Assembly: GCF_900115185.1 (NCBI RefSeq)
Contig: NZ_FOVN01000001.1
Coordinates: 434,001-498,000, forward strand
Direction of reading: 5' to 3'
Origin: Algorimicrobium echini
GTDB lineage: Bacteria; Bacteroidota; Bacteroidia; Flavobacteriales; Flavobacteriaceae
Length of the DNA stretch: 64,000 nt
Position numbers and translations under genes: made by a program. Shown here piece after piece: positions 3,767-30,463 of the stretch. Within the stretch, counting starts at the first letter, position 1, and each line of letters begins with the position of its first letter. Below the pieces are notes generated by a model. It had not been told where the DNA came from, ran no database searches, and worked only from the letters and a program-made list of their open reading frames with translations.

Positions 3767-3776
3767 AACCACTAAT

Positions 3777-16501: not shown

Positions 16502-18757
16502 TTAATCGCCTTTAAATTCTTTCGAAGTTTTCTTACGCTTAAATAGTTTTTTTAACCAACCATCTTCCTTTTCCAATTTACAATCTAAATCTTTTAAAAC
16601 GTCATTACTTGGTGTTTCAAAAGTGCTTTTGGTAATTGCGTTAAATTCAGAATCGTTGTTCAATCTCTGATAAAATTTGGCAAACATGGGTAAAGCCGAA
16701 TTAGCACCTTGACCCAAAGCCGTCGTTTTAAAACCGATGTTATAATTATCATTTCCTACCCAGGTAATAGTGACCAATTTGGGTGTAATGGCCACAAACC
16801 ATCCATCTTTATTATCTTGTGTGGTTCCTGTCTTTCCGGCTATAGCGTTAGTTAAATTATAAGTCGTTCGTAGTCGTGAAGCGGTACCGCTATTAACCGT
16901 TGTTTTCATCATTTCCAATAAAACCTGTCGGGTATAATTGCTATACGCTTGTTTTTCTAACATTTCCGGCTCAAAGTCAGCTATCACGTTACCGTTTTTA
17001 TCTTCAATCTTCGTTATCATGTAGGGTTTCACACCATAACTATTATTTACATAGCTGGCGTAAGCGCCTATTAATTCTATCAAATTTATTTCAGCAACAC
17101 CTAATGCTAAAGAGGGTTCTGTAGGCAATGCTTTAGTAATACCCATTTTTTGCGCTTGCTCTTGAACTTTAGAAATACCAACATCATTTAAAACTTTTAC
17201 GGCAATGGTGTTTACCGAATTACTCAACGCCATTTCCAGATTGTAATTAATATCTGTTTTCTCCTTGGGATCTTGTCCTGCATTGGTTGGTGTCCAGTTT
17301 TTGTAGTTGGTATAGGTTACGGCATCTATAGAATAATATGAACAAGGCTTCATACCGTTTTCAATAGCAGCTGTATATACAAAAGGCTTAAAGGTTGAGC
17401 CCACTTGACGTTCACTTTGAGACACGTGGTCATATTTAAAATAGCGATAATCTATACCACCAATATAGGTTTGGATGGCGCCCGTTTTTGGGTCGATGGA
17501 CAACATTCCTGTATTTAAAAGTTTAAGATAGTGTTGTAGACTATCTTTTGCTGAAAGCATTGCAGTACTATCACCTTTCCAAGAAAATACATCCATACTG
17601 TGTTTTACAGATAACGAGTCGTCTATCGCTTTTTCTGAAAGACCAGCTTTTTTTATACGCTGATATTCTGGTAGGCTTTGTAAGGTTTTTTTAAATACAC
17701 TTGTGTTGGATGTCCAAGGTGCATTTTTGCCATGTGATGCTTCATAAGCTGCTTGCAGTTTAGTAAGGTGTTCTTTCATTGCGTCTTCTGCCATGGTTTG
17801 CATCGTGGCATTTAACGTGGTGTAGACTTTTAATCCATCTTTATAAATATTATAAGCATCACCATTTGGCTTTTTATACGCTTTTAAAATCGTTTGAAGT
17901 TGTTGCTTAACCTGCGCTCTAAAATAAGGTGCTAATCCTAAATCGTGATTAAACGAATGATATTTAATAACGAGGGAATCCGTTTTAAGTGAATCAGCTT
18001 TTGCTCCTTTTAAATAGTTGTATTTCACCATTTGATCCAATACCACATTGCGTCGTGACTGACTTCTGGCAACCGATTTTCTGGGATTGAAATAGGTTGT
18101 TGCTTTTAAGGTTCCTACTAAGGTTGCAGCTTCTGGAATGGTTAATTGACTAGCCGATTTATTAAAAAATTTTTGCGAAGCACTTTCAATTCCATAGGTA
18201 TTATCTGGAAACGGAACCGTATTTAAATAGAGTGTTAAAATTTCTTGTTTGGAATACACATCTTCCATACGTTGTGCTACAATAGATTCTTTAAATTTAT
18301 TAATAAGCATACTAAACAATGCATAATCTTCCCGACCATATAAGTTTTTAGCGAGCTGTAGTGTTATGGTGCTTCCACCACCAGCCGATTTATCTTGAAG
18401 CAGTATATTTTTAAAAAACACACGCAACAAACTAATATTATCAATACCGTCATGTTCGTAAAAGCGAACATCCTCTGTTGCTACCAACGCATCAATCAAA
18501 TGTTTTGGAAACGCTTCATACGCCAATGGCTGCCTATCGTAAATATAAAATTTGCCAATTAATGTTTCATCTTGATCTAAAACTTGTGTAGCTTCTGCTT
18601 GTTTTAAAGTACTTAATTCTTCATGTGTTGGCACTTTTCCAAATAGCCCAAAATAAATACAAGCATACAAGGCAACAAAGAATAAAATAATACCAGCCAA
18701 TACCATTAGCGACCATTTTACCCATGTCTTTTTTAAAAATGCACGTACTTTACCCAT
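16502..18757 (-). CDS. Class A penicillin-binding protein 1A
   Basis: This 751-residue bifunctional peptidoglycan synthase has one N-terminal membrane anchor (about 15-37). The GT51 glycosyltransferase domain carries the catalytic glutamate in TEDVRFYEHDGID (Glu 95) and GGGSTITLQLAKN. The transpeptidase domain has the serine nucleophile in GSTFKPF (Ser 454 to Lys 457), an SVN motif (about 514-516) and KTG (642-644). A basic C-terminal tail follows. It is encoded convergently with DUF3078. A 451-base gap without genes precedes it. Confidence 0.93.
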   Translation of the reverse strand: MGKVRAFLKKTWVKWSLMVLAGIILFFVALYACIYFGLFGKVPTHEELSTLKQAEATQVLDQDETLIGKFYIYDRQPLAYEAFPKHLIDALVATEDVRFYEHDGIDNISLLRVFFKNILLQDKSAGGGSTITLQLAKNLYGREDYALFSMLINKFKESIVAQRMEDVYSKQEILTLYLNTVPFPDNTYGIESASQKFFNKSASQLTIPEAATLVGTLKATTYFNPRKSVARSQSRRNVVLDQMVKYNYLKGAKADSLKTDSLVIKYHSFNHDLGLAPYFRAQVKQQLQTILKAYKKPNGDAYNIYKDGLKVYTTLNATMQTMAEDAMKEHLTKLQAAYEASHGKNAPWTSNTSVFKKTLQSLPEYQRIKKAGLSEKAIDDSLSVKHSMDVFSWKGDSTAMLSAKDSLQHYLKLLNTGMLSIDPKTGAIQTYIGGIDYRYFKYDHVSQSERQVGSTFKPFVYTAAIENGMKPCSYYSIDAVTYTNYKNWTPTNAGQDPKEKTDINYNLEMALSNSVNTIAVKVLNDVGISKVQEQAQKMGITKALPTEPSLALGVAEINLIELIGAYASYVNNSYGVKPYMITKIEDKNGNVIADFEPEMLEKQAYSNYTRQVLLEMMKTTVNSGTASRLRTTYNLTNAIAGKTGTTQDNKDGWFVAITPKLVTITWVGNDNYNIGFKTTALGQGANSALPMFAKFYQRLNNDSEFNAITKSTFETPSNDVLKDLDCKLEKEDGWLKKLFKRKKTSKEFKGD

Positions 18758-19208
18758 TGAAATCTTGAAATATTTGAATCATCTATTTAGGTGAAATTTT
18801 ATTATTTAAACAAACCCGCTTTATATAGCTTTTGAAAGTGAAAAAACTATTAGTCTTATCTTTTGTGCATTGTCCAAAAAAGAAACAAAAAAGACTAGAC
18901 TTACCAACCCTTATCTAAATTTATCATTCGACGCCTAAATTTTAGGAACTCGCTTTGAAAACACTTATTAATTCATAATTTCGCTTGCTTAAACAGCCTA
19001 AAATTTTACGCCATTTACTCATGTATCAATATTTTATTTTTTGGTATTCGTAAATCTTCGATTTCATTTCAAATTTTACAATAAAACTTCGATGGGCCGA
19101 AATTGGAATATTTTAAAGCAAATCTTACAACATTGAATCACTGTTCGATACCAAAAACACAAAGGATTTAAAAACATTAATGAAACTCATTTAAGATACT
19201 AATGTGTT
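18758..19208. other. 451-bp gene-free region between hflX and the PBP gene
   Basis: No convincing gene was found in either strand. The stretch around 18870-19030 reads as a decayed ORF on the plus strand (HCPKKKQKRLDLPTLI followed by stops). It resembles a non-coding remnant that I recall seeing repeatedly in flavobacterial intergenic regions; that is recollection, not a search. A 7-bp inverted repeat TAGTCTT (18851-18857) and AAGACTA (18891-18897) is present. The PBP promoter must lie at the left end, but no TAnnTTTG box was seen. Confidence 0.4.
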
Positions 19209-20420
19209 TTATTCTTCTTCGTCGTAATCTGGATATAAAAAGTGATTATAAGGAAAACGGGTTACATGAATCTCACGAACCTCATCATAAACACGCTTTT
19301 TAAACTCTTTCATATTCTGCTTGTTTAAGGCCGAAATAAACAAGGCATTATTGCCTACCCGATTCATCCAGGTTTTTTGCCATTCTTGTAGCGAATAATG
19401 TGCTTCTGTCCGCTCTACTTCCAAATCGGTTTCATCATACGGTTCTGGTTGGTAAGCATCTATTTTATTAAAAACCATAATGGTTTCCTTATCTGCACAA
19501 CCTATTTCACCCAAAACCTTATTTACGGAATCAATATGTTCTTCAAAATTAGGGTGCGAAATATCCACTACGTGCAATAACAAATCGGCTTCGCGAACCT
19601 CATCCAAGGTACTTTTAAAACTATCTACCAATTGGGTTGGCAGCTTTCTAATAAATCCTACTGTATCGGTTAACAGGAATGGTAAATTCTGTATGACCAC
19701 TTTCCGAACCGTTGTATCTAATGTGGCGAATAGTTTGTTTTCGGCAAACACATCGCTTTTACTAATGGTGTTCATCAGTGTAGATTTACCAACGTTGGTA
19801 TAACCAACAAGTGCCACACGAACCATTTTACCACGATTACCACGTTGCACAGCCATTTGTTTATCTATGGTCTTAATTTTGTCTTTTAAGAGTGCTATTT
19901 TATCCCGAACAATACGTCTGTCTGTTTCAATTTCTGTTTCACCAGGTCCACGCATACCTATACCACCTTTTTGGCGCTCCAAGTGTGTCCACATACCTTT
20001 AAGTCGTGGCAATAAATATTCACATTGTGCCAATTCCACTTGGGTTCTGGCATAACTGGTTTGGGCGCGTTGGGCAAAAATATCGAGGATTAAATTGGTT
20101 CTATCAAGGACCTTACATTCCAGAATTTTACTGATATTTCGTTCTTGAGCAGCGGATAATTCATCATCAAAAATGGCGGTTCCAATATCGTTATCTTGAA
20201 TGAATTGACGGACTTCTTCCATTTTACCTTTTCCAATAAAGGTTTTTGGGTTTGGCATATCCATTTTTTGGGTAAAGCGTTTTAAAACCTCTCCACCTGC
20301 AGTGTAGGTAAGAAACTCTAACTCGTCTAAATATTCTTTAGATTTATCTTCGTCCTGACTTTTTGTAATAACGCCAATTAATACGGCACGTTCGTGCGTG
20401 ATATCTATTTTTTCTATCAT
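19209..20420 (-). CDS. hflX: Ribosome-associated GTPase HflX
   Basis: This is a 403-residue HflX-family GTPase, which binds 50S subunits and in other bacteria splits stalled ribosomes. The N-terminal domain contains ERAVLIGV and NPKTFIGKGKMEE. The middle region has RRLKGMWTHLERQKGGIGMRG-type sequence (quoted in part). The G domain has G1 GYTNVGKST, G3 DTVGFIRKLP and G4 NKID. I chose the ATG at 20420, because the nine extra upstream codons overlap the predicted promoter box. A plain C-terminal extension ends in DYDEEE. Confidence 0.94.
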   Translation of the reverse strand: MIEKIDITHERAVLIGVITKSQDEDKSKEYLDELEFLTYTAGGEVLKRFTQKMDMPNPKTFIGKGKMEEVRQFIQDNDIGTAIFDDELSAAQERNISKILECKVLDRTNLILDIFAQRAQTSYARTQVELAQCEYLLPRLKGMWTHLERQKGGIGMRGPGETEIETDRRIVRDKIALLKDKIKTIDKQMAVQRGNRGKMVRVALVGYTNVGKSTLMNTISKSDVFAENKLFATLDTTVRKVVIQNLPFLLTDTVGFIRKLPTQLVDSFKSTLDEVREADLLLHVVDISHPNFEEHIDSVNKVLGEIGCADKETIMVFNKIDAYQPEPYDETDLEVERTEAHYSLQEWQKTWMNRVGNNALFISALNKQNMKEFKKRVYDEVREIHVTRFPYNHFLYPDYDEEE

Positions 20421-20434
20421 AAGCTTTAAAAGTA

Positions 20435-20442
20435 CAAAGTTA
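20435..20442 (-). promoter_or_regulatory. Predicted hflX -7 box (TAACTTTG)
   Basis: Read on the minus strand this is TAACTTTG, a full TAnnTTTG match, 14 bases before the chosen ATG of hflX. It overlaps codons of the longer possible ORF, which supports the shorter start. Confidence 0.55.
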
Positions 20443-20475
20443 AACAATTGTAGGCAGTTTAATTTTTATATTTTT

Positions 20476-20526
20476 AACGCGATTGCTTAAATTTTTGAGT
20501 GTGATGCAAAAAAAACAGCCATAAAG
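20476..20526. repeat. Cassette left-end repeat R2, copy 1
   Basis: This segment, beginning AACGCGATTG and containing AAATTTTTGAGTG, ATGC, an A-run and CAGCCATAAAG, recurs in diverged form at 23063-23113. In both places it leads into the terminator of a minus-strand cargo gene. Copy 1 lies just upstream of the hflX promoter. The similarity was aligned by eye at roughly 80-85 percent. Confidence 0.7.
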
Positions 20527-20562
20527 AAAGAAGCGGTTATGCTTCTTTCTTTATGGCTGTTT
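20511..20562 (-). terminator. Intrinsic terminator of the first DUF6705-like gene
   Basis: A long perfect stem (ACAGCCATAAAGAAAGAAGC with its complement, loop GGTTAT) is flanked by A-runs on the left, which become a T-run on the minus strand. It lies 25 bases downstream of the minus-strand gene ending at 20587. Confidence 0.88.
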
Positions 20563-20586
20563 ACTCTTATAGTGTTTATTAATAAT

Positions 20587-21177
20587 TTATTGCTTATTAA
20601 CAATTATTTCAGTTGGTAGTGTAAAATTATAATTATAAGCAGGTTCTCCATCAAATCTTCCAGGAATTTCTTTTGGGTTCTCTATTTTCACATTTAATTG
20701 ATTTAAATTTCCCGATAAAAATTCAAAAGTTGCGTAACAATAACCTTTATTAAGTACAATGTCATTAAAAATAAATATTAATTTGCCATTTTCTACACAG
20801 CTTGTATACATCGGGTTTTCACTTGGGTTCTCGTTAACTGGACTAATAATTGAATTAACAATAAATGAATTTCCCGAGTCAATCGAATAGCTGTAGTTAC
20901 CAATCATATAGTCTTCGAATATTTTGTGTTCAGGAAAATATTTTTGAGTTACTTTGGTTAATTCGAATACCACTATTTGGTTCCCATTTTCCCATTTCCA
21001 AGTACCAATAAAGTCATTAAAAGTTCCGTTTAAATCAGAGAAATATGTATAGTTAGGCACATCTTCTTCCGTCAAACCACTACAAATATTTTCTGTTACA
21101 CTAGGAATAGGTGCTGGATTTTGACTATAAATGTTGATTCCTAATAGTAAAGCTAAGGTTATAAGTATTGTTTTCAT
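20587..21177 (-). CDS. DUF6705-like secreted protein (paralogue 1)
   Basis: This 196-residue protein has a Sec signal peptide (MKTILITLALLLGINIYSQ) without a lipobox. The body shares the layout of its two neighbours: an FSDLNGTFNDFIGTWKWENG block at about 46-65, then a YMIGNYSY-like strand and an ENGKLIFIF block. These match a flavobacterial family that I recall as DUF6705; the family name is from memory and this copy is the most divergent. It is the last of three tandem paralogues, each with its own terminator. Function unknown. Confidence 0.65.
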   Translation of the reverse strand: MKTILITLALLLGINIYSQNPAPIPSVTENICSGLTEEDVPNYTYFSDLNGTFNDFIGTWKWENGNQIVVFELTKVTQKYFPEHKIFEDYMIGNYSYSIDSGNSFIVNSIISPVNENPSENPMYTSCVENGKLIFIFNDIVLNKGYCYATFEFLSGNLNQLNVKIENPKEIPGRFDGEPAYNYNFTLPTEIIVNKQ

Positions 21178-21232
21178 GTTATGAAAATGTAGACTTGGGT
21201 TTCAACGTAAGATAACAGTAATTGTTGAAAAC

Positions 21233-21263
21233 AAAAAAGCCTCTCAAATGCATGAGAGGCTTT
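21233..21263 (-). terminator. Intrinsic terminator of the second DUF6705-like gene
   Basis: GCCTCTCA (21239-21246) pairs with TGAGAGGC (21253-21260) around a 6-base loop. On the minus strand it is followed by a run of Ts. It lies 17 bases after the stop codon of the gene ending at 21280. Confidence 0.88.
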
Positions 21264-21279
21264 AAAGTTTTAAAGTTAC

Positions 21280-21834
21280 TTATTGTTTTATCATGACATA
21301 CTTACCATAAGGTATTCTGCTATCTGTTGGTGAGCCTTCCGGTATTATAGAATAACTACCGGTTATAACTGCTTTTAAATCGTTAACGTTACTGTTTTGA
21401 GTATTAGGTATGGTTCTTAAAACAAGTTCACACTTTATATAATCTCTTACCGGATCATAAAGCGCTAGAAAAATACTTCGTTCATTAGGACCACAGTTTT
21501 CACAACCTGGTAAAAACTGGGATGGATTTATTCTGTTACCAAATATAAGGTGTTCTGATATATCCGAAGGATTACTATCAATATTCGTTAACGTATTGAC
21601 TAATTGATTTCCATTAGAATCTTTGTAAAGGTATTCTCCATATAGATAATCTGCATAAAAGGCTGGTATATTGCCTACACCATTATAATAATATTGTTCT
21701 TTTTTTCTAATAATAATTCTTAATTTTTCACTTCCGTTGTTATATTCCCAAGTTCCAATAAACCTATCAAAGTCATTATCAGTATCTTTATAATAGGCGT
21801 TAGCTGTATTAGCATAATCCGAGCCGTCATACAA
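21280..21834 (-). CDS. DUF6705-like protein (paralogue 2) with a decayed 5' end
   Basis: This is a 184-residue reading frame whose only start is a TTG inside what should be the mature protein. Read upstream in the same frame, codons for FIFSIVSCKAQSPIIS appear, clearly a lipobox matching SCKAQSP of paralogue 3, but a stop codon comes before any start. A possible ATG at about 21892 is in a different frame and runs into TAA. The gene has therefore probably lost its signal peptide start by small indels and may be a pseudogene. The body (KDTDNDFDRFIGTWEYNNG, FGNRINPSQF, PYGKYVMIKQ) is intact and closest to paralogue 3. Confidence 0.6.
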   Translation of the reverse strand: MYDGSDYANTANAYYKDTDNDFDRFIGTWEYNNGSEKLRIIIRKKEQYYYNGVGNIPAFYADYLYGEYLYKDSNGNQLVNTLTNIDSNPSDISEHLIFGNRINPSQFLPGCENCGPNERSIFLALYDPVRDYIKCELVLRTIPNTQNSNVNDLKAVITGSYSIIPEGSPTDSRIPYGKYVMIKQ

Positions 21835-21928
21835 AGATATTATGGGACTTTGCGCTTTACAAGAAACTATTGAGAAAATAAATTGGAGTTCTCATATCAC
21901 TAATTTAAAACTAATGTTAGTAAGATAG

Positions 21929-21983
21929 AAAAACAGCAGAAAAGTATGAACGGTTTGGGCACCACTTTTAACTGCTGTTTTTT
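21929..21983 (-). terminator. Intrinsic terminator of the third DUF6705-like gene
   Basis: AACAGCAG pairs with CTGCTGTT and AAAAGT with ACTTTT around a GC-richer loop. An A-run at the left edge becomes a T-run on the minus strand. It lies 22 bases after the stop of the gene ending at 22005. Confidence 0.75.
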
Positions 21984-22004
21984 ATTAAATAATTTTATCA
22001 GTTT

Positions 22005-22619
22005 TTATTCTTTAACCATTAAATACTCACCATAAGGTACTCTTATTGTAGAAGGTGAGTTTTCATCAGGTAACATTCCACCATGTGGAAATATTGTAGC
22101 TGTTATTTGTTCGTCTTGCCCGGGCACATTACCATCTTGTATATATCGCAGTACAGTGGAGACAGATAAATATGGACGTTCTGGGTCGCTAAAATATAGC
22201 TTTACCCTTCTTTCGTCAGGAGCGCAATCATCACATGCTACATATAAATTGTTTGGAATAATATAATTACCACCAATATTTGTGTTATCTAAATCAGTTT
22301 CTGTTTCAGTGATTAAAGGAAATGTATTTACAATTTCAACACCGTTGGTGGTGTATGAATATGCTCCGAACAACTCATCAGAATAGTATTTAAAACCATC
22401 GTAAACCATCTCTTTTTTTTCCAAAGTAATAGTAAAAGTTATTGTGCCTTCTGTGAAAATCCAAGTTCCTTCAAATTTATCAAGTTCATTATTTAAATCC
22501 TTTAAATAAGCTCCACTTGGTGTAGTAGTTGGAGCATCTAAACTAACGATTGGTGATTGTGCTTTACAAGATAAAGTTAGCCCTATTACCAATAAATTTA
22601 TATATATTATATTTTTCAT
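22005..22619 (-). CDS. DUF6705-like lipoprotein (paralogue 3)
   Basis: This 204-residue predicted lipoprotein has the lipobox LTLSC (Cys 18) and the characteristic SCKAQSPIVSLD start of the mature chain. The body has GAYLKDLNNELDKFEGTWIF (quoted in part), an YSDELFGAYSY strand, CDDCAPDERRVKLYF and a PYGEYLMVKE C-terminus. It matches my recollection of DUF6705. Paralogues 1 and 2 follow on the same strand, each behind a terminator, so each is probably transcribed separately or by read-through. Function unknown; such tandem arrays are common in accessory regions of Flavobacteriaceae (recollection). Confidence 0.72.
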   Translation of the reverse strand: MKNIIYINLLVIGLTLSCKAQSPIVSLDAPTTTPSGAYLKDLNNELDKFEGTWIFTEGTITFTITLEKKEMVYDGFKYYSDELFGAYSYTTNGVEIVNTFPLITETETDLDNTNIGGNYIIPNNLYVACDDCAPDERRVKLYFSDPERPYLSVSTVLRYIQDGNVPGQDEQITATIFPHGGMLPDENSPSTIRVPYGEYLMVKE

Positions 22620-22630
22620 TCTATTATTTT

Positions 22631-22788
22631 TTAATTACAAGGTTTTGGGTTTGCTAAAGTTCCATTATTATTTAAAGACAATTTTTCCCAAGTTTCTAAC
22701 TCGTTTGGGTTATTTAAATTGTTAGGTTTCAATTTATATAAAGAAACTCCTAATTCTAAATCATTCCGCAATAATCCAAACCTACTAA
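22631..22788 (-). pseudogene. C-terminal fragment of an unidentified gene, cut at the repeat edge
   Basis: On the minus strand an open frame of about 52 codons runs from the A-run at 22787 to a TAA at 22631. It encodes LLRNDLELGVSLYKLK, then NELETWEKLSL, and ends NPKPCN. There is no start codon: the frame begins in the homopolymer at the left edge of repeat R1. It is best read as the surviving end of a gene truncated when R1 was joined here. It lies upstream of, and in the same direction as, the DUF6705-like genes. I do not recognise the family. Confidence 0.55.
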
Positions 22789-23064
22789 AAAAAAAAAATG
22801 ATTAGAACTAGCTTTTTTGATGAATTATGTGCCGTTCATCAAATACCCAAAAAACCGTTACGGTTTTCCCGAAAAATGGTCCAGTTTCAGCACTTTGCCT
22901 TTTTGGCACTATGAGTTTTTGAGTATAAAGTCCATTTTTTAATTCCCAATTCATACTTTTAAGCAAACACTAAAATTAATGACCAGCAAGCAAAAGTCAG
23001 CAGATTCTCTTGGCACCTTTACTATTGCTTTTTACAATACCGAAAATCTATTTGATATTTATAA
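22787..23064. repeat. Repeat R1, copy A (EEP upstream region and first 28 codons)
   Basis: From the first base after the A12 run (22799-23064), 266 bases align without gaps to 24506-24771, with 7 mismatches counted by eye (about 97 percent identity). The copy contains the EEP gene's upstream region and start. It includes an AAAACCG-TTA-CGGTTTT hairpin and a TGCC-TTTTT-GGCA hairpin. Copy B leads into the full-length gene; this copy breaks off after GATATTTATAA. Confidence 0.95.
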
Positions 23065-23089
23065 TGCGTTTACTGAAATTTTTGAGTGA
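22979..23089 (+). pseudogene. Truncated 5' end of an EEP hydrolase gene
   Basis: The ATG and the first 28-29 codons are nearly identical to those of the intact EEP gene at 24686 (MTSKQKSADSLG, then FYNTENLFDIYN). The frame then runs into repeat R2 sequence (AFTEIFE) and stops after 36 codons. The catalytic core is absent, so this cannot be an active enzyme. It marks a duplication junction. Confidence 0.9.
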
Positions 23090-23113
23090 AATGCAAAAAA
23101 CAGCCATAAAGTT
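23063..23113. repeat. Cassette left-end repeat R2, copy 2
   Basis: This diverged second copy of the segment next to hflX (AATGCG, AAATTTTTGAGTG, ATGC, A-run, CAGCCATAAAG) is joined directly to the broken EEP fragment. As in copy 1, it leads into the terminator of a minus-strand cargo gene. Confidence 0.7.
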
Positions 23114-23146
23114 AGAAAGAGTTGAACCTCCTTCTTAATGGCTGTT
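23095..23146 (-). terminator. Terminator of the four-TM protein gene
   Basis: ACAGCCAT (23100-23107) pairs with ATGGCTGT (23138-23145), continued by an imperfect AAG..AAAGAG / CCTCCTTCTTA stem. The A-run on the left is a T-run on the minus strand. It lies 26 bases after the stop of the gene ending at 23172. Confidence 0.7.
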
Positions 23147-23171
23147 ATTAAGTAATACGTAATTAAATAGT

Positions 23172-23549
23172 TTAATAATATAAGTATTTGAGAGCTAATA
23201 CTGCAGCAGAAATACCTATAATAAAAATTGGTATTTTATTCTTCCAAGACCTCTTTCGGTAATAAGGAATAAGAATTATACAAAATGACAAAACACCAAT
23301 AATAGTAATCGTAATCAAACTTATGCTTTGTGAAAAATTTTCGGGTGATTTTATATTTCCGTTATATAAATAAACAAATCCTAGAATTGAAACGATAATT
23401 CCAATAAAAGAAATTAACACATTTGTTCTTATTATTTTAATAGGCTGTTTAGAAATTATCACTTTAAATAAATTCCATACAGGAATTATAGCCACAGTAA
23501 TAAAAATTACCACTTTAATAAAATCCCAAATAATCTTTTGATTTTCCAT
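23172..23549 (-). CDS. Small four-helix membrane protein, possible immunity protein
   Basis: This 125-residue protein has four predicted membrane segments (about 10-30, 42-62, 76-95, 106-124) and short basic loops (ISKQPIKIIRTN, PYYRKRSWKNK). It has no signal peptide and no enzyme motif. Its ATG is only two bases after the stop of the upstream lipoprotein gene, so the two are certainly co-translated. It resembles immunity proteins of membrane-active bacteriocins only in size, topology and position; no family was recognised. It is the last gene before a terminator. Confidence 0.65.
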   Translation of the reverse strand: MENQKIIWDFIKVVIFITVAIIPVWNLFKVIISKQPIKIIRTNVLISFIGIIVSILGFVYLYNGNIKSPENFSQSISLITITIIGVLSFCIILIPYYRKRSWKNKIPIFIIGISAAVLALKYLYY

Positions 23550-23551
23550 AT

Positions 23552-24244
23552 TTATATCAAATCCATACAGCTAGAAAAATCATATGCAGCAATAAGCACT
23601 CCAACTGGACCAATAAAATTGCGTAGCACCCTTTTTAAACCTTTAATTCCTAAAGATAAAATTGTTTCGGCAGTTATGGTAGAAGCAGAGCCACCTACAG
23701 CAGCACTTGCAAGAGCATCTCCTACAGCAACCAACAAATCTAAGCCGACTGCGGAGCCAAGACAACCAAGAATGTTCGGACCACCCATTCCACTAGCGTC
23801 AGCTTTAAAACCATTTAAGCCGCCGACCAAACCAATACCTACAAGAGCGATTCTTGGATCGTCATTACTACCAAAAAGATCCTTCATTAAATTAGGGTCA
23901 AAACCTAATTCATTTAAGGCTAAATTCGTTTTGTTAACCAAAGGCATTGTTATTTGTAAAGCCTCATTTACAGTTAAGTTTTCCAATTCATGGGAACTAT
24001 TTACTGATGTTTCAAAGAAACTTAAGACTAATTGTGCTTCATCAACCAGAGGTGTTATTTTGTTTAGAGCTTTAAGTTTTAAATCTTCAATAGATTTGGA
24101 ACTCATCCCTTCGTTCCTATTTAACTCACTATAATTAGGTGAATATATTTCATCATTATCATATTGACTGCAAGAGCTAAATAAAAGTAATACTGATGCA
24201 AAAAGCGACAAGTTCGGTTTTCTAAATATTTCAATAATGTTCAT
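23552..24244 (-). CDS. Lipoprotein with a glycine/alanine-rich hydrophobic C-terminus
   Basis: This is a 230-residue predicted lipoprotein (LFSSC, Cys 25). Residues about 26-130 form a charged, mostly helical region. Residues about 131-230 are rich in Gly, Ala and aliphatics, with a GLVGGLNGFKADASGMGG stretch, two cysteines (161 and 226) that could form a disulfide, and a cationic patch LGIKGLKRVLRNF. This C-terminal region looks like a helical, membrane-active peptide. Together with the four-TM protein encoded two bases downstream, it suggests a surface toxin with its immunity protein, but nothing in the sequence proves it. No family recognised. Confidence 0.6.
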   Translation of the reverse strand: MNIIEIFRKPNLSLFASVLLLFSSCSQYDNDEIYSPNYSELNRNEGMSSKSIEDLKLKALNKITPLVDEAQLVLSFFETSVNSSHELENLTVNEALQITMPLVNKTNLALNELGFDPNLMKDLFGSNDDPRIALVGIGLVGGLNGFKADASGMGGPNILGCLGSAVGLDLLVAVGDALASAAVGGSASTITAETILSLGIKGLKRVLRNFIGPVGVLIAAYDFSSCMDLI

Positions 24245-24685
24245 AATTTTTTAAATTTATGTAATAATTTTAGTTAATAATAATTGTTTGATTGGTATTT
24301 GTGAAAAAGAATTTTAATAACTTATTATTCACAATGACTCCATAGTTTTGAAATTTTTAATTAAAGAAGTTTTGCAATAATATTCCGTATCCAGAATAAA
24401 AAAACTGACGTCAGTTGTTGATATATCATGTCGTAGATAATCGATTCAGACTTCAAAACTAAACCAAATTATTTTCGATGCGGCAAACATAAAAAAAAAA
24501 AAAAATGATTAGAACTAGCTTTTTTGATGAATTATGTGCCGTTCATCAAATACCCAAAAAACCGTTACGGTTTTCCCGTAAAATGGTCCAGTTTCAGCAC
24601 TTTGCCTTTTTGGCACTATGAGTTTTTGAGTATAAAGTCCATTTTTTAATTCCCAATTCATACTTTTAAGCAAATACTAAAATTA
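24245..24685. other. 441-bp divergent region between the cargo lipoprotein and the EEP gene
   Basis: The left part (24245-24490) must hold the promoter of the minus-strand lipoprotein gene. A weak minus-strand candidate is TAGTTTTG at 24454-24461 with TTTG 22 bases further upstream, which would give a leader of about 200 bases. A perfect 14-bp palindrome lies at 24403-24416. The right part is an A15 run followed by repeat R1 copy B, the EEP upstream region. Confidence 0.5.
24403..24416. promoter_or_regulatory. Perfect 14-bp palindrome AACTGACGTCAGTT
   Basis: This palindrome has no spacer and lies about 160 bases upstream of the cargo lipoprotein start codon. It could be an operator. A few perfect 14-bp palindromes are expected by chance in 64 kb, so the evidence is weak. 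Confidence 0.25.
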
Positions 24686-24771
24686 ATGACCAGCACGCAA
24701 AAGTCAGCAGATTCTCTTGGCACCTTTACCATTGCTTTTTATAATACCGAAAACTTATTTGATATTTATAA
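24491..24771. repeat. Repeat R1, copy B (upstream region and 5' end of the intact EEP gene)
   Basis: This is an A15 run followed by 266 bases (24506-24771) that match 22799-23064 with 7 mismatches and no gaps. The match ends within the EEP gene at GATATTTATAA. Of the mismatches, five are within the coding part. Confidence 0.95.
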
Positions 24772-25651
24772 CGACCGTAGCAAACACGATCGGGATTATT
24801 TACCAAATTCTGAAAGACGTTGGACTAAAAAACGCTATCAAAATAAACTAGATAAAATTAGTTTGGCTATTTCTAAAATTGGTGAAACCAAATCCGAAGA
24901 TGCACCAAGTATTATTGGACTAGCCGAAGTGGAAAATGGTAAAGTTATCCGCGATTTATTAGATACTACGCATTTAAAAGGTATTCCCTACGGTTTTGTA
25001 CACTTTAACTCCAAAGATGAACGTGGTATGGATGTGGCGCTTATTTACAATACAACAGAATTTACAGTGACTCATTCAGAGATTTTTGAACTGATTTTTG
25101 AAAGATCCGAAGGAGGCGACGATTTCACACGAGACGTTCTTTTAGTTACTGGAAGTCTTAAAGGCGAAACCATTTCGATACTTGTGAATCATTGGGCTTC
25201 CAGACGAGAAGGCACACAACTATCTGAAGTGAAACGCTTACAAGCTTCCGAGAAAGTAAGCGAGATTATTAAGGATATACAGACGAAACAAACAGATGCA
25301 AAAATTATTATCATGGGCGATTTTAATGATGATCCACATTGTAAGAGTATTACCCAACTCACAGAAAATAATAACGTGTTCAACCCGATGAATACCTTAC
25401 AATCCTATAATCGTGGGAGTTTGGTGCACCAAAGAAAGTGGCATTTGTTTGATCAGATTATGTTTACGATGCCTTTTTTTGAATCGCGAGAAAACCATTT
25501 GGAATTTGATTCGGCCAATATTTTTGATGCCGATTTTTTAAAAGAATACAAAGGCAGACATAAAGGGACACCTTTTAGAACCTATGCTGGCAACAAGCAC
25601 AAAGGTGGTTATAGTGATCATTTTCCTGTTTATATGACCTTAAAAAAATGA
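24686..25651 (+). CDS. Endonuclease/exonuclease/phosphatase family protein, no signal peptide
   Basis: This 321-residue EEP-fold metal-dependent hydrolase shows the expected motifs in order: FYNTENLFD (about 17-25), GLAEVENG with the metal-binding Glu, DERGMDVALIY, VNHWASRR, MGDFNDDP and the C-terminal GYSDHFPVY with the catalytic Asp-His pair. Substrates in the family range from DNA and RNA to phosphoinositides and sphingomyelin, and the sequence does not tell which applies. No signal peptide is visible. A secreted paralogue is encoded 5 kb downstream. Its 5' end is duplicated at 22979. Confidence 0.88.
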   Translation: MTSTQKSADSLGTFTIAFYNTENLFDIYNDRSKHDRDYLPNSERRWTKKRYQNKLDKISLAISKIGETKSEDAPSIIGLAEVENGKVIRDLLDTTHLKGIPYGFVHFNSKDERGMDVALIYNTTEFTVTHSEIFELIFERSEGGDDFTRDVLLVTGSLKGETISILVNHWASRREGTQLSEVKRLQASEKVSEIIKDIQTKQTDAKIIIMGDFNDDPHCKSITQLTENNNVFNPMNTLQSYNRGSLVHQRKWHLFDQIMFTMPFFESRENHLEFDSANIFDADFLKEYKGRHKGTPFRTYAGNKHKGGYSDHFPVYMTLKK

Positions 25652-25813
25652 AGGGTAAACTGAAGAACGTTTCCGAATACTTTTAAAGATTATACGAAAC
25701 TTAAAAACCTGATTAGTGAGCTAAAACCGTCCCGACAAAGAACTTTTAGAACCTAGCGAGTAGACTTAAATTAGCCAGCAATTTGTAAATAAATAATTTG
25801 AATTTTTAATAAT

Positions 25814-26191
25814 TTAAACAGCTTGCCAGAGTATTACTGACAATAAAATGCAAGCAACAGGAAGCAACCAAAGCAAAAATATGGAGTGGTTTTGAGATTT
25901 CTTATTCAGCATTTTAGCATTTAGTACTTGACGCTTCCTTCCAGCATATTGCACCCAATTTTTAAAAAAAATAAAAATGGTGGCTATAATAAATAATACC
26001 CACGCTTTATCTTGAGACATGGTATTCATATTCATCTGGCTAGAAAAACCAGCAAAAAACATCCCTAATAACAACAAGATACAGCATTGTAAAATAGAAA
26101 TATAAACCGTAGCTAGTTGATTGGCTTTTTTGTGTTTTTTGTTTTTATAGTGTCTAAACAGGCTAAAAAAAAGAGAATCGAAAGTGGACAT
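25814..26191 (-). CDS. Small membrane protein of unknown function
   Basis: This 125-residue protein has three predicted membrane helices (about 29-47, 64-78 and 101-122) and a basic N-terminus (RHYKNKKHKKANQ). It has no recognised family or catalytic motif. It lies downstream of the DUF5689 lipoprotein gene on the same strand, separated by a terminator, so it is probably transcribed on its own. About 160 bases without features separate it from the EEP gene, which converges on it. Confidence 0.65.
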   Translation of the reverse strand: MSTFDSLFFSLFRHYKNKKHKKANQLATVYISILQCCILLLLGMFFAGFSSQMNMNTMSQDKAWVLFIIATIFIFFKNWVQYAGRKRQVLNAKMLNKKSQNHSIFLLWLLPVACILLSVILWQAV

Positions 26192-26215
26192 GAGTACAGA
26201 TATGGTATAAAAATT

Positions 26216-26249
26216 AAAAACCTGCTAAATGTAATCATTAGCAGGTTTT
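26216..26249 (-). terminator. Terminator of the TonB receptor / DUF5689 operon
   Basis: CCTGCTAA (26221-26228) pairs with TTAGCAGG (26238-26245), extended by ATG/CAT with one bulge. An A-run to the left is the T-run on the minus strand. It lies 23 bases after the stop of the DUF5689 gene. Confidence 0.82.
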
Positions 26250-26271
26250 AATAATATAAAATTAATAACTT

Positions 26272-27669
26272 TTATTCAGTTGCAAATACATTAAAGTTAT
26301 CTACTTGGTAAGCACCATCTAAAGATGTATCGGTTCCAGATCCTGTAACTTTAAAAGCAACATAAAGAGTACCTGTATAACCAGAAATATCAATTAAACC
26401 AGAGTCAACCATTTCATACCAGCTATTATCCATAGTTGGCAAGCTAGCAGATACTGGTTCCCATGTGGCAGCTAATACATCAGTTCCATCAAAATCAGTT
26501 GAAACAAATACTTCTAAAGTGTTTGCTTCTGACTCTAAATGGTGTTGAGCAGCTGTAAAGTTTAATCTTTCGTCTTCTTGAGCATCCATATCTATACCTG
26601 GTGACACTAACCAAGCAATATTTACTGGACTTCCTGAATTAAAAGTACTGAATTCAGTATAGCCATTGTTATCGAATATTTTCTCTCTCCAAACCCATGA
26701 ACCTGCTTCTGCAAAGTTTGTCCAACCTGGAATGTCTAAATTGGTATTGTTTGTTGCAGATTCAAAATCTTCACTAAAAATAGCAACTGCTAACGAGCAA
26801 CGGTTACCTTCAAGGTTTACATCATCAACAGAGTTTAATGCTAATACTACAGAGGCACCATCGAAGGTTTTGTTTACTACTGCCTTAAGAGTTCCATTTC
26901 CAGTAGGTAATAATTCGTTCTTAAATGTAGAGAAACCACTAGTTTCAAGGTTAATTGTAGTGTAATTTACACCTCCACATGATTGAAGTTGTCTTTTTGT
27001 ATCAAAATCTTCCATTGGATCAAAGTAACGCTTACCTGCTAAATTATCAGCAAACTCCACATTATCTAATTGTATAAACACACCAACAAGACTTGAGTTT
27101 ATTTGAGATACAGATACGCTTAATGGTACTATTTCTTCAGTAACAGGCGATCTAAAAACATGTGTTCTTGCACGAGTTTGTCCTAAACTTGTTACGGTTG
27201 TTCCGTATTGATCTGTTTCAATTCCACCTCCAATAGCAGTAACACCATTACCAACACGTTCTTCACCAATATATAAATCTTTTAAACTTACATAAACTTC
27301 ACGACCAAAGTTAAATTGATTATATAAGTCCACTTGATTAATTATTACTTTAATAGCAGTAGTTGGGCTTGAGGGACTATCTTGAAGATAAAATTCTTTA
27401 AAGAAATTTCCTGATTTATCTGAAGAAGACACATACCCTTTAATATAAATGTTTTCATCTATTGGCTCTAAAAAATCGCCTACAGAGTACATTGCTTTTG
27501 CTTCAGCTATTGAAATCTCTGTTCCATTAGCTAGTAAAGTGTTTAATCGTGCATTTTCTTCATCACCTAAACTTGTAGGTATGGTGTAATCGTCATCTTG
27601 AACACAAGATACAATAGCTAAACTAGCAACTATTGTTAATACTAGGGTTAAAAATTTATTTGTTTTCAT
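26272..27669 (-). CDS. DUF5689 and choice-of-anchor J domain lipoprotein
   Basis: This is a surface lipoprotein of about 465 residues (IVSC lipobox, Cys about 22). I chose ATG 27669 over an upstream in-frame TTG. Residues about 30-290 match DUF5689 as I recall it, an OB-like ligand-binding domain (NIYIKGYVSSSDKSGNFFKEFYLQD, quoted in part). Residues about 300-465 are a choice-of-anchor J jelly-roll domain (FSEDFES, GWTNFAEAGSWVW, DGAYQVDNFNV). It follows a TonB-dependent receptor by 37 bases and is probably its lid or substrate-binding partner. A secreted EEP hydrolase is encoded divergently from the receptor. Confidence 0.82.
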   Translation of the reverse strand: MKTNKFLTLVLTIVASLAIVSCVQDDDYTIPTSLGDEENARLNTLLANGTEISIAEAKAMYSVGDFLEPIDENIYIKGYVSSSDKSGNFFKEFYLQDSPSSPTTAIKVIINQVDLYNQFNFGREVYVSLKDLYIGEERVGNGVTAIGGGIETDQYGTTVTSLGQTRARTHVFRSPVTEEIVPLSVSVSQINSSLVGVFIQLDNVEFADNLAGKRYFDPMEDFDTKRQLQSCGGVNYTTINLETSGFSTFKNELLPTGNGTLKAVVNKTFDGASVVLALNSVDDVNLEGNRCSLAVAIFSEDFESATNNTNLDIPGWTNFAEAGSWVWREKIFDNNGYTEFSTFNSGSPVNIAWLVSPGIDMDAQEDERLNFTAAQHHLESEANTLEVFVSTDFDGTDVLAATWEPVSASLPTMDNSWYEMVDSGLIDISGYTGTLYVAFKVTGSGTDTSLDGAYQVDNFNVFATE

Positions 27670-27706
27670 AATCAATAATTCGTTTAATTAATTTTCTTTT
27701 TCGTTT

Positions 27707-30463
27707 TTAGAATCTAAAGTTAACATTTACAAAATAAGTTGCACCACGTCCATACCAATATTTTGGTCCAAACTGACGTTTAGGCGCTTGATTGTCAGCT
27801 AACAACTCTGTATAATTGGCATTTCTACCTTGTTCAAAACCACCTGTTTTATAGATTTCATCCAACAAGTTATTGACGCTAGCAAAAAGGCCGATGTAAT
27901 AATCGCCAACTTTCCAAGATTTTCCACCTGTTAAATTTACAGTAAAATAGGCATCAATCTCTTCTTGCTTTAATAATTCAGTTGCAATATCTTCATCATA
28001 ATTGTTAATTGGTAGACCATCATTAGCTAAATAAAAGTTCTGTGTTCTTAATAATGGGCTCACATCTATATAGGCATTTGCTAAATAGTTAACGGTTGCA
28101 CCAAAAAACCAGTAGTCTGGATCACGATATTCAAAACCTAATGAATACGCTTGTTGTGGACCACCTGCCACTTTATAATCTTTTAAATTAGATGTAAACG
28201 TTTGAGTTCTGCCCCTAGTACCAAAACTAGTTGATGTTAAATATAAATCAGGATTATTATCATAAGTATACTGACCTACAGATGCAACACCTTTTAATTT
28301 AATGGTTGGTGTTACTTGAGCCTCAATACCTAATTCCGCTCCAATATGTTTTTTATCTACACCTTGTAACACTTCCTGAACAAAAGCAGAAGTGTCATTG
28401 AATGCTTCATCTACGTTTGTTATACCATCCGCATAATAAAATGAAATTTCGTTGGCATCTTCAATTTTTGTGTAGAAACCTGTTAACTTCGCTTTTACAA
28501 TTGGTGATCTGAAAATATAACTAGCATCAAAAGCGGTAATTTTTTCTTCTGTAATATTATCAACCACACTATTATTGTCTCTTGAGTTTGAGTACGAGTT
28601 TCTAATTGTTGGCGCCTTTGTTAAATAACCACCGTTAACATCTATTAAATGTTTTCCTGTAATTTTATACGTTAAACCAGCTTTAGCACCAACTCCTGTA
28701 AAATTTAATTTTTCACCTTTTCCAAGCGATAAATTTCCTAGAAACGCGCTATTTTCCCAGAGTCCTTCACGCTGGTAGGTTGTACTTGTTAGACTTCCTG
28801 AAAGGTAAAAATCTACTTTACTATATTTAAATTGAGCTTGTGCATATCCTGAAATAATTTCTGAATAAATATTGTAGTTATAGCGATATTTATCACCCTC
28901 ACCAATAATACGGTTTGGATTTTGATTATCAAACTGAAACCCATCAAAAGCATCTACATTTAAATACCCAGTAGCACCTAACAAATCAATAATTTCTCCA
29001 AAATTTTCAGACTTTAAATTTTTGTAATTTATAGCGGCATTTAAAATAATATTCTGATTAATTTCGGTATTAAATATGGAGTTAACTGTTAATAGTTTGT
29101 CATCACTACGATCCTCATATAAGGCGTAGGCACCAGCTTCACCAACAGAAGCATTAGTTACGTTAGCATCCAGGATACGAGGCCAGTCAATTTGCCCATC
29201 ATTAATAAAATTTTGTTCAGCTATATAAGCTCCTGCATAATCAGGACCATCAGAATCCGCTAAAAAGTAGCTTGGTAAACTTTGGTAATACGCAGGACTT
29301 GGGTTTCCTCCACCTCCAAAGTCCAAACGGCTATTACCTATTTTACCGTACTGATAACCAACATTGGTATTTAAGGTTGTTTTACTATTAATGTCCCAAT
29401 AATGATTTAGCATAAAAATTGGCTCTTCAATTTCTTTGATTCGTGAATTTTTCTTTTCACCATCTAAATAGCCCCAATACTCATTATACTTAATATCTTT
29501 TAAATCATAAACCTCTTGGGTATTAGGCGATGACTTTCCACGACGGTTTGGCGTGTACATAGAAGTAAAATTCAAGCTATGTTTGTCGTTGATTTGCTTT
29601 TCAACAGCAACAAAAAATGAATTGGCATCATATAGTGTTGCATCTTGATAGCCTTCATTTCCCCAACGTCTTCCGCCCATAACAGCATAAGACCAACCAC
29701 CTTCAAGTAAACCAGAGGCATAACTAGCCATAACACGATTGGTATAACTTCTGTTAGAAGAAGAATAGGTAACACGACCACCTTCACGATATTGAGATGC
29801 ACGCACATTCATATTTGTAGTTCCTAAAATACCACCAAAGTTATAAGCAGAAGGAGCTAAACCAGTTGTTAATTCCTGATTACGTAGCATATCATTTAAG
29901 CCTCCCCAATTACTCCATTGTGGTCTACCATCATAAATTTTATTCATTTCAATTCCATTAACTAAAACAGAACCGTTTTCAGAATCTAAACCTCTTACTC
30001 TAAAAAAAGATGAACTCCACTCAAAAGCAGCGGTTCTTTGAAACACATCTTGCGATGATTGTAGTAAACCCGAAATATTATCAAGTCCGCCAGAATCATC
30101 ATCCAATTCATCTTCTGTTAATTGAATTGTAAATAAATCGGCTGATGTATCCCGTTCTAAAGTCATATCTGTAATATTTACCGTTTGACCTTCATTAATA
30201 ACAATTGGATACCTTTTAAAGATGTATTCATCTTTCGATATTCTTAAAATCTGCTCACCCAGTGGTAAATCTGATGTTAATTCAAACATACCGTTTTCAT
30301 CAGTTACTGTCGAAATTTGTGTCCCTTCTATAGTAACCGTTACATTTCTGATGGGATTAAAAGAAATAACATCTGTGACACTTCCTTTGACTATTGTTTG
30401 CTGTGCAAACGCAGTAATAGTCGCGAAAAATCCAAATAAAAAAACAATTAAACTTTTTTTCAT
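27707..30463 (-). CDS. TonB-dependent outer-membrane receptor
   Basis: This is a 918-residue outer-membrane transporter. It has a signal peptide ending AFAQ (about 21), a carboxypeptidase-like regulatory domain (about 23-110, VKGSVTDVISFNPIRNVTV), a plug domain (VRGLDSENGSVLVNGIEMN) and a C-terminal beta-barrel ending in Phe (VNFRF). The DUF5689 lipoprotein downstream and the divergent secreted EEP hydrolase suggest uptake of a product of phosphoester hydrolysis, such as nucleosides or phosphate compounds. This substrate is an inference from neighbourhood. Confidence 0.9.
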   Translation of the reverse strand: MKKSLIVFLFGFFATITAFAQQTIVKGSVTDVISFNPIRNVTVTIEGTQISTVTDENGMFELTSDLPLGEQILRISKDEYIFKRYPIVINEGQTVNITDMTLERDTSADLFTIQLTEDELDDDSGGLDNISGLLQSSQDVFQRTAAFEWSSSFFRVRGLDSENGSVLVNGIEMNKIYDGRPQWSNWGGLNDMLRNQELTTGLAPSAYNFGGILGTTNMNVRASQYREGGRVTYSSSNRSYTNRVMASYASGLLEGGWSYAVMGGRRWGNEGYQDATLYDANSFFVAVEKQINDKHSLNFTSMYTPNRRGKSSPNTQEVYDLKDIKYNEYWGYLDGEKKNSRIKEIEEPIFMLNHYWDINSKTTLNTNVGYQYGKIGNSRLDFGGGGNPSPAYYQSLPSYFLADSDGPDYAGAYIAEQNFINDGQIDWPRILDANVTNASVGEAGAYALYEDRSDDKLLTVNSIFNTEINQNIILNAAINYKNLKSENFGEIIDLLGATGYLNVDAFDGFQFDNQNPNRIIGEGDKYRYNYNIYSEIISGYAQAQFKYSKVDFYLSGSLTSTTYQREGLWENSAFLGNLSLGKGEKLNFTGVGAKAGLTYKITGKHLIDVNGGYLTKAPTIRNSYSNSRDNNSVVDNITEEKITAFDASYIFRSPIVKAKLTGFYTKIEDANEISFYYADGITNVDEAFNDTSAFVQEVLQGVDKKHIGAELGIEAQVTPTIKLKGVASVGQYTYDNNPDLYLTSTSFGTRGRTQTFTSNLKDYKVAGGPQQAYSLGFEYRDPDYWFFGATVNYLANAYIDVSPLLRTQNFYLANDGLPINNYDEDIATELLKQEEIDAYFTVNLTGGKSWKVGDYYIGLFASVNNLLDEIYKTGGFEQGRNANYTELLADNQAPKRQFGPKYWYGRGATYFVNVNFRF

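What the first reader, a model, noticed from the sequence alone, without database searches (positions are those of the whole stretch)
20468..24773. Two stacked cassettes with shared ends and unrelated cargo between hflX and EEP
Reading from hflX: repeat R2, terminator, minus-strand cargo 1 (three DUF6705-like genes), then R1; then R2 again, terminator, minus-strand cargo 2, then R1 and the intact EEP gene. Each unit begins with R2 and ends with R1, but the cargo differs completely. This is what one expects if two alleles of one locus, with alternative cargo, were joined in tandem by unequal exchange, or if one copy of a tandem duplication had its cargo replaced. No recombinase is visible, so the exchange would rely on the host.
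Basis: partly seen in the sequence, partly recalled or inferred. Interest (0 to 1): 0.75.

Follow-up and report, generated by a model that had tools for sequence, protein, structure and literature searches.

The report
Stacked toxin-immunity cassettes beside EEP gene
A marine bacterium carries, back to back between two housekeeping genes, two gene cassettes that look like old and newer weapons-and-antidote modules, joined in a way that left a broken piece of the neighbouring gene between them as a scar.

Summary
The two units are real. R1A and R1B are 97% alike over 288 nt and include EEP codons 1-29; R2A and R2B are about 79% alike. They are not mobile-element ends: R1 is cargo promoter plus EEP 5' end, R2 an older EEP 5' remnant plus a terminator-like hairpin. 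Cargo 1 is a putative orphan immunity array. In 32 of 40 surveyed regions a DUF6705 gene directly follows a large ORF, often a lipoprotein, with a C-terminal HxH..SxxD (JAB/JAMM-like) motif; in the window only a 44-codon stub of that toxin remains, and a toxin profile found none in the genome. Cargo 2 (lipoprotein plus four-TM protein) is a less certain toxin/immunity pair. Of 12 relatives with hflX next to EEP, 10 are empty and 2 hold DUF6705 cargo. EEP codons 1-29 are shared by the window and B. algoritergicola but not by the latter's empty sister. Best model: a second allele was added by homology-anchored illegitimate recombination at about 10 nt of microhomology, the route proposed for Vibrio T6SS immunity arrays. 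The toxin/DUF6705 pairing was not found in print. New variant of a known kind.

The parts
19209..20447 (-). hflX, fixed flank
   Evidence: ORF; orthologues 75-98% identical in 12 relatives; name from the finding, not scanned
20464..20510 (+). R2A: remnant of the old EEP promoter and first codons
   Evidence: aligns with EEP 5' region of empty relatives G001, L009, L010
20513..20562 (.). bidirectional terminator of cargo 1
   Evidence: 22-nt perfect inverted repeat; terminator scan, both strands
20587..21177 (-). c1a, DUF6705, putative immunity gene
   Evidence: PF20448 E=3.9e-19; 95% identical protein in B. myxarmorum hflX locus
21236..21263 (-). terminator after c1b; resembles the hairpin next to tsf in B. 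algoritergicola
   Evidence: only exact copy of this pattern in the genome
21280..21834 (-). c1b, DUF6705, putative immunity gene; signal-peptide part out of frame
   Evidence: PF20448 E=6.9e-25; 91% identical to a gene in the tsf locus of B. algoritergicola (L116)
22005..22619 (-). c1c, DUF6705, lipobox-like start, putative immunity gene
   Evidence: PF20448 E=3.7e-39
22634..22765 (-). C-terminal stub of a deleted JAB/JAMM-like toxin gene
   Evidence: hmmsearch with 40-toxin profile over six frames of nine loci, E=1.4e-4, reaches the profile end, directly upstream of c1c
22777..22978 (.). R1A non-coding part: cargo-1 promoter region with palindrome at one mismatch (22858-22874), and EEP leader
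22979..23064 (+). truncated EEP copy, codons 1-29
   Evidence: 96.6% identical over 29 aa to intact EEP
23051..23066 (+). junction between EEP codon 29 and R2B, about 10 nt of near-identical sequence in both parents
   Evidence: sequence and alignment
23051..23100 (+). R2B: EEP 5' remnant of the second allele
23098..23149 (.). terminator-like hairpin of cargo 2, imperfect
   Evidence: not called by the scan
23172..23549 (-). c2a, 125 aa, four hydrophobic segments, putative immunity protein
23552..24244 (-). c2b, 230 aa, lipobox-like start and Gly-rich hydrophobic C-terminus, putative toxin
   Evidence: one weak relative in 148 other genomes
24395..24685 (.). R1B: cargo-2 leader and promoter with perfect palindrome TTACGGNNNNNCCGTAA (24565-24581), and EEP leader
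24686..25651 (+). intact EEP gene, fixed flank and recombination anchor
   Evidence: PF19580 E=4.8e-98

Best explanation
The hflX-EEP spacer is an insertion hotspot for promoter-led antagonism cassettes in Bizionia. Cassette 1 began as a secreted lipoprotein toxin with a JAB/JAMM-like C-terminal domain plus DUF6705 immunity genes. Its toxin has since been deleted down to a C-terminal stub, which leaves the promoter directly in front of an orphan immunity array; the array would protect against relatives that still make the toxin. Cassette 2 is a lipoprotein, probably a membrane-active or bacteriocin-like toxin, with a four-TM partner, probably its immunity protein. The stack formed when DNA from a strain carrying cassette 2 at the same site recombined by homology in R1/EEP at one end. 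At the other end it joined illegitimately at ATATTT(A/T)TAA within EEP codons 26-29. EEP stayed intact and a 29-codon EEP scar remained between the cassettes. Shown: duplication, scar, stub, DUF6705-toxin linkage, patchy occupancy, and sharing of the EEP 5' end between the window and L007 against the tree. Inferred: toxicity, immunity, foreign origin of the second allele, and the recombination route.
For: DUF6705 directly follows an ORF of at least 300 aa with H.H..[SAG]..D in 32 of 40 regions, one per genome. All 12 toxins or toxin pieces found earlier, without use of that motif, have it too. The four intact G053 paralogues are 85-100% identical over 200 aligned residues, 70-75% over the next 40, then 8-41%. 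Toxin stub in the window, E=1.4e-4. No toxin match at E<=0.01 in the own genome. Sister species L007 and G001 differ, one filled and one empty (support 0.994). EEP codons 1-29: L007 against G001 25 mismatches of 87, rest of gene 81 of 879, p=1.1e-6; window against L007 8 of 87. R2A/R2B differ far more than R1A/R1B. Neighbour-gene ends are also repeated across cassettes at pheS (L118) and secDF (L184). R1-led stacks recur on C17 of the own genome (L040) and in G001 (L051). The same route is proposed for Vibrio T6SS arrays (PMC5361080).
Against: No relative with cargo 2 alone was found (0 of 12). L008, also occupied, does not share the EEP 5' end with the window more than the rest of the gene (p=0.9). 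A repeat of neighbouring sequence across the cassette showed in only 2 of the 40 survey regions (L181, L184, 50 nt or more, E<=1e-6). No experiment shows toxicity or immunity. DUF6705 model: pLDDT 61, no significant PDB match. Single-sequence toxin model failed, pLDDT 34. The toxin profile had no meaningful match to PDB sequences and no Pfam or NCBIfam match over cutoff. Cargo 2 has no family assignment.
Confidence: 0.62

Rival explanations
1. Tandem duplication inside one genome of a single R2-cargo-R1-EEP5' unit, followed by replacement of the cargo in one copy.
For: Two units in the same order; R1A and R1B 97% alike.
Against: R2A and R2B should then be about as alike as R1A and R1B unless R2B was replaced too; they are 78.6% alike, near the 80.6% of R2A against B. 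algoritergicola. The leaders just upstream of the shared promoter also differ. It needs two events where one suffices.
Confidence: 0.2
2. Campbell-type integration of a circle carrying cargo 2 and R1-EEP5' by one homologous crossover, so that the cassette moves through its own 288-nt flanking repeats.
For: Cargo 2 is flanked by 288-nt direct repeats; joining across them in a script gives an EEP frame of 321 codons without internal stops. A similar repeat layout is seen at pheS and secDF. It gives the same final product.
Against: No circle was looked for or could be seen here. The R2B remnant shows that cargo 2 once sat at a hflX-EEP site, which direct transfer from such an allele explains with one step less.
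Confidence: 0.15
3. DUF6705 genes and cargo 2 are ordinary surface or regulatory lipoproteins of one regulon; R1 is only a shared promoter and no antagonism is involved.
For: R1-like promoters also precede Porph_ging (GLPGLI-type) genes and a conserved short ORF. No activity is known.
Against: Constant N-terminus, variable C-terminus, conserved putative metal site, adjacent multi-copy DUF6705 genes, toxin stubs and patchy distribution are the usual signs of polymorphic toxin loci.
Confidence: 0.15

Closest known systems
T6SS effector-immunity displacement arrays of Vibrio cholerae (Kirchberger et al. 2017, PMC5361080; abstract, start of text and section 13 seen)
   Same: A new effector-immunity module enters next to a conserved anchor, the older module keeps its immunity genes and loses its effector, effector 3' ends can remain, and homology-facilitated illegitimate recombination is the proposed route.
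   Different: No T6SS gene was seen in window 17000-29000 (by reading). Each module brings its own promoter, and the displaced module keeps its promoter, terminator and a piece of the anchor gene.
Polymorphic toxins with Tox-JAB-1 and Imm65 (Zhang et al. 2012, PMC3482391; only passages found by term seen)
   Same: Bacteroidetes, C-terminal JAB-like domain with E, HxH, S, D, and a lipoprotein immunity protein.
   Different: There the N-terminus carries RHS repeats and the immunity family is Imm65. Here no RHS match was found in the nine toxins scanned and the partner is DUF6705. Homology of DUF6705 with Imm65 was not tested.
Integron cassette arrays (recalled; the comparison is also drawn in PMC5361080 section 13)
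   Same: Stacking of same-orientation cassettes next to a fixed anchor, with older ones displaced outward.
   Different: No integrase-like ORF was seen in window 17000-29000 (by reading); attC sites were not searched; each cassette has its own promoter.

Membership tests
Polymorphic toxin system | Constant N-terminus joined to variable C-terminal domain among paralogues | tested here: met
   Four intact of seven G053 loci: 85-100% over 200 aligned residues, then 8-41% after a 70-75% step
Polymorphic toxin system | Immunity gene directly downstream of toxin | tested here: met
   DUF6705 directly downstream in 32 of 40 regions and 34 of 54 DUF6705 clusters; in the window the toxin is only a stub
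Polymorphic toxin system | Toxicity neutralised by the cognate immunity protein | not testable with these tools
   needs experiment
JAB/JAMM domain | Conserved Glu, HxH, Ser, Asp | tested here: met
   E38, H74, H76, D104 invariant, S101 at least 90% in 40 sequences. 32 of the 40 were picked by the HxH..[SAG]xxD motif, so for those only the Glu is an independent result; 12 of 12 toxins or pieces found without the motif have it
JAB/JAMM domain | Deaminase-like JAB fold or a database match | tested here: inconclusive
   no Pfam or NCBIfam match over cutoff, no PDB profile match of value, failed model
Tox-JAB-1/Imm65 | RHS repeats in toxin N-terminus | tested here: not met
   no RHS family at E<=1 in 8 intact toxins and 1 partial one
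Tox-JAB-1/Imm65 | Imm65 partner | not tested
   no Imm65 sequence was at hand
Effector-displacement immunity array | Immunity genes kept without their effector beside a second module | tested here: met
   that cargo 2 is such a module is inferred
Effector-displacement immunity array | Anchor homology on one side and illegitimate joint on the other | tested here: met
   R1/EEP homology and 10-nt microhomology joint
Integron | Integrase next to the array | tested here: not met
   no integrase-like ORF in window 17000-29000 (by reading of the ORF list)
Integron | attC sites between cassettes | not tested
   no attC search was made

The most novel reading that the evidence does not exclude
Flavobacteria may carry an integrase-free cassette system. 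Each toxin-immunity module carries its own regulated promoter plus a copy of the end of the neighbouring housekeeping gene. That copy serves as landing homology and repairs the gene on arrival, so modules stack at fixed sites (hflX-EEP, tsf, a thioredoxin-like gene, pheS, secDF) and leave gene-end scars that record each arrival.
Probability: 0.38. Interest if true: 0.75.

Novelty: new variant of a known kind. Interest (0 to 1): 0.6.

Why it matters
It gives a testable role to DUF6705, a family of unknown function. It points to a toxin/DUF6705 pairing spread over many Flavobacteriales. It also offers a locus where the order of arrival of weapon modules can be read from scars of a neighbouring gene. 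The recombination route by which immunity arrays grow, proposed for Vibrio, could be tested here at a locus without secretion-system genes around it.

Tried and rejected
Rejected: R1/R2 as ends of a transposon (no transposase-like ORF in 17000-29000 by reading; no inverted repeats bounding the units; R1 spans a start codon). Integron (no integrase ORF seen). Rfam: the four hits in 20400-24800 are weak miRNA-family matches to the perfect terminator hairpin, all below gathering scores. PADLOC: no hit in six proteins. Structure search with the DUF6705 model: best E 0.079, none at E<=0.001. Single-sequence fold of the L007 toxin C-terminus failed. Profile searches of PDB sequences gave nothing of value. 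Literature (CC-licensed PMC only): DUF6705 in 0 papers; Imm65 in 2, 1 relevant; palindrome core in 3 unrelated papers; three broader searches led to the two papers cited; Bizionia plus toxin gave 10 papers, listing only seen, none plainly on this. The palindrome with one mismatch allowed is not enriched in the own genome (13 sites against 17 for the reversed control); exact sites are (42 against 0 in six Bizionia genomes; in the 34 other genomes 20 against 12). ComEC and DprA are present, but E. coli has both too, so they say little.
Full report
WHAT IS THERE. Between hflX (minus) and EEP (plus) lie two units. R1A 22777-23064 and R1B 24484-24771 match at 97% over 288 nt; R2A and R2B match at 79-84% over 50-nt pieces and 78.6% over 98 nt. 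Cargo 1 is three DUF6705 genes; cargo 2 is a 125-aa protein with four hydrophobic segments and a 230-aa protein with a lipobox-like start. R1 includes the EEP start codon and 29 codons, so unit 1 ends in a truncated EEP fragment. R2 aligns with the promoter and first codons of EEP in relatives with an empty site, so it is an older EEP 5' remnant followed by a terminator-like hairpin.

RELATIVES. Thirteen EEP relatives were fetched. Ten of them (L007-L016) have hflX next to EEP; L017-L019 show no hflX in the stretch held and were dropped. Two more with the pair came from genome searches: G001/L042 and G018/L026. L028, L029, L030 and L032 show EEP without hflX in short stretches and were also dropped. 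Of these 12, ten have no cargo (the ends of the hflX and EEP matches lie at most 216 nt apart) and two have it: L007 B. algoritergicola (a toxin gene, two intact DUF6705 genes and broken pieces of another, about 4.1 kb) and L008 B. myxarmorum (three DUF6705 genes, about 2.5 kb). None has cargo 2. An hflX tree puts occupied L007 with empty G001 (0.994), then the window (0.895), then empty L009 (0.986), then occupied L008 (0.528), so occupancy is patchy. In EEP codons 1-29 L007 differs from its sister G001 at 25 of 87 sites but in the rest of the gene at 81 of 879 (p=1.1e-6); against the window it differs at 8 of 87. The other tests: window-G001 p=0.0096, window-L007 p=0.15, window-L009 p=0.35, L007-L009 p=0.22, window-L008 p=0.9. 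So the 5' end of EEP goes with the cassette for the window and L007, but L008 gives no support.

WHAT R1 IS. The non-coding part of R1 has relatives elsewhere in all six Bizionia genomes searched. In the loci read they mostly stand in front of genes that read away from R1: DUF6705 or toxin operons, small Cys-rich lipoproteins with TM partners, Porph_ging (GLPGLI-type) genes, or a conserved short ORF; L058 could not be read. In transcript orientation R1 has a palindrome TTACGG-N5-CCGTAA, a poly-T tract and, in winA, winB and several other rows, a TAnnTTTG box; that this box is the Bacteroidetes -7 element is recalled. Exact palindromes number 42 in six Bizionia genomes against 0 for the reversed pattern. 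R1A has one mismatch in the palindrome, R1B none.

WHAT CARGO 1 IS. Of 60 genomes (this one included) 7 have DUF6705; of 395 in the order (this one included) 58 have it. I took one region from 40 of those 58 genomes: the best match of each, except G213, where the best match lay at a contig start and another cluster was taken. G000, G028 and G053 had been looked at before; 15 were not fetched. Of the 40, 32 have an ORF of at least 300 aa with H.H..[SAG]..D in its last 300 aa directly upstream (under 250 nt) of a DUF6705 gene. The eight others: L161 has such a toxin with two genes between; L170 a 499-aa lipoprotein with a variant motif; L176 a lipoprotein without the motif; L175 and L183 broken pieces; L173 a short piece near a contig end; L180 a contig edge; L182 none. 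By cluster: 34 of 54 intact with motif, 4 short with motif, 2 long without, 9 short without, 4 with nothing near, 1 at an edge; a simple lipobox pattern is met by 21 of the 34. Among 69 other ORFs of that size 9 match the motif, 3 of them of the same toxin family. Forty C-termini share invariant E, H, H, D and Y and nearly invariant S, F and C; 32 of the 40 had been picked by the motif (L158 and L177 were left out), so for those H, H and D are not independent, but the 12 toxins or pieces found without it all have it. The four intact G053 paralogues are 85-100% identical for 200 aligned residues, then 70-75%, then 8-41%. This is the polymorphic-toxin layout, so DUF6705 is most likely the immunity family. 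In the window a profile of these toxins finds a stub at 22634-22765, E=1.4e-4, between R1A and c1c. A genome-wide search with the profile found nothing at E<=0.01 in G000, G001, G004 or G005, one match in G002 and two in G003; it missed the stub too, so it sees only larger pieces. In L008 one frame just before the first DUF6705 gene ends in a similar tail, but the profile did not score it. c1b's signal-peptide part is out of frame. The array is mosaic: 20510-21263 matches L008's hflX locus at 89.5%, and 21169-21889 matches the tsf locus of B. algoritergicola at 86.8% and L007's hflX locus at 81.3%.

WHAT CARGO 2 IS. c2b has one weak relative in 148 other genomes (G110, 30% over residues 1-115, E=1.1e-4). 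There too a 233-aa protein with hydrophobic C-terminal segments is followed by a 135-aa protein with three hydrophobic segments, and the pair sits between the intact end of a class II tRNA synthetase gene, read as pheS (PF01409), and a degenerate second copy of it (201 nt, 71%). Two further lipoprotein-plus-TM cassettes are stacked on C17 of the own genome (L040), with 384 columns repeated at 88%. A toxin/immunity pair is the likeliest reading but rests on analogy.

HOW THE STACK FORMED. EEP codons ending GATATTTATAA run straight into the R2B sequence at 23051-23066, where the parental left end reads ATATTTTTAA. R1/EEP homology on one side and a microhomology joint on the other is what homology-facilitated illegitimate recombination would leave, the route proposed by Kirchberger et al. 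for Vibrio immunity arrays (PMC5361080, section 13). A like scar is seen in L184 at a SecDF gene (100 nt, 96%: its last 12 codons, stop and a hairpin), and L181 has an 84-nt intergenic repeat across its cassette (79%), but these are 2 of the 40 survey regions. Several others (L151, L156, L169, L175) repeat toxin 5' ends between stacked modules instead. Joining across the 288-nt repeats gives a full EEP frame of 321 codons, so loss of cargo 2 by one crossover should be possible.

KNOWN OR NEW. Zhang et al. 2012 (PMC3482391, passages) describe Tox-JAB-1 with RHS N-termini and the lipoprotein immunity family Imm65 in Bacteroidetes, and polyimmunity loci. DUF6705 is in no paper of the library searched, which holds only openly licensed papers. 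I file this as a new variant of a known kind.

Noticed in passing
L040 (G000:C17:250000-258000), 1783-4725: A second stack of two R1-led cassettes (lipoprotein plus small membrane protein each) in the same genome, with 384 columns repeated at 88% that reach the hairpin beside the neighbouring thioredoxin-like gene.
   Followed up: partly
L048, 1799-2062: At the corresponding site of B. algoritergicola only the 87-aa membrane gene is left behind an R1 element, as if its lipoprotein had been deleted.
   Followed up: no
L072 (G000:C8:282500-288000), about 2707-2723: A perfect copy of the R1 palindrome, with a second half-copy, lies just 3' of a response regulator gene (PF00072) next to a histidine kinase gene (PF02518); a candidate regulator of the regulon.
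   Followed up: partly
L041, L055, L056, L057: The palindrome region is conserved in four Bizionia genomes upstream of a short ORF with a signal-peptide-like start; the L057 stretch is partly N.
   Followed up: no
L053, 244-1992: An R1-led cassette pairs a small Cys-rich lipoprotein with a CAAX-protease-family membrane protein (PF02517, E=1.1e-7) and a 65-aa membrane protein; such proteases serve as bacteriocin immunity elsewhere (recalled).
   Followed up: partly
L109, 2936-3397: An ORF made of STLRGGG-type heptad repeats lies about 1.1 kb upstream of a broken toxin gene in G053.
   Followed up: no
window 24565-24581: Read on the minus strand the palindrome with its T-run also scores as a weak terminator (6-bp stem), so it may act as RNA rather than as an operator.
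   Followed up: no
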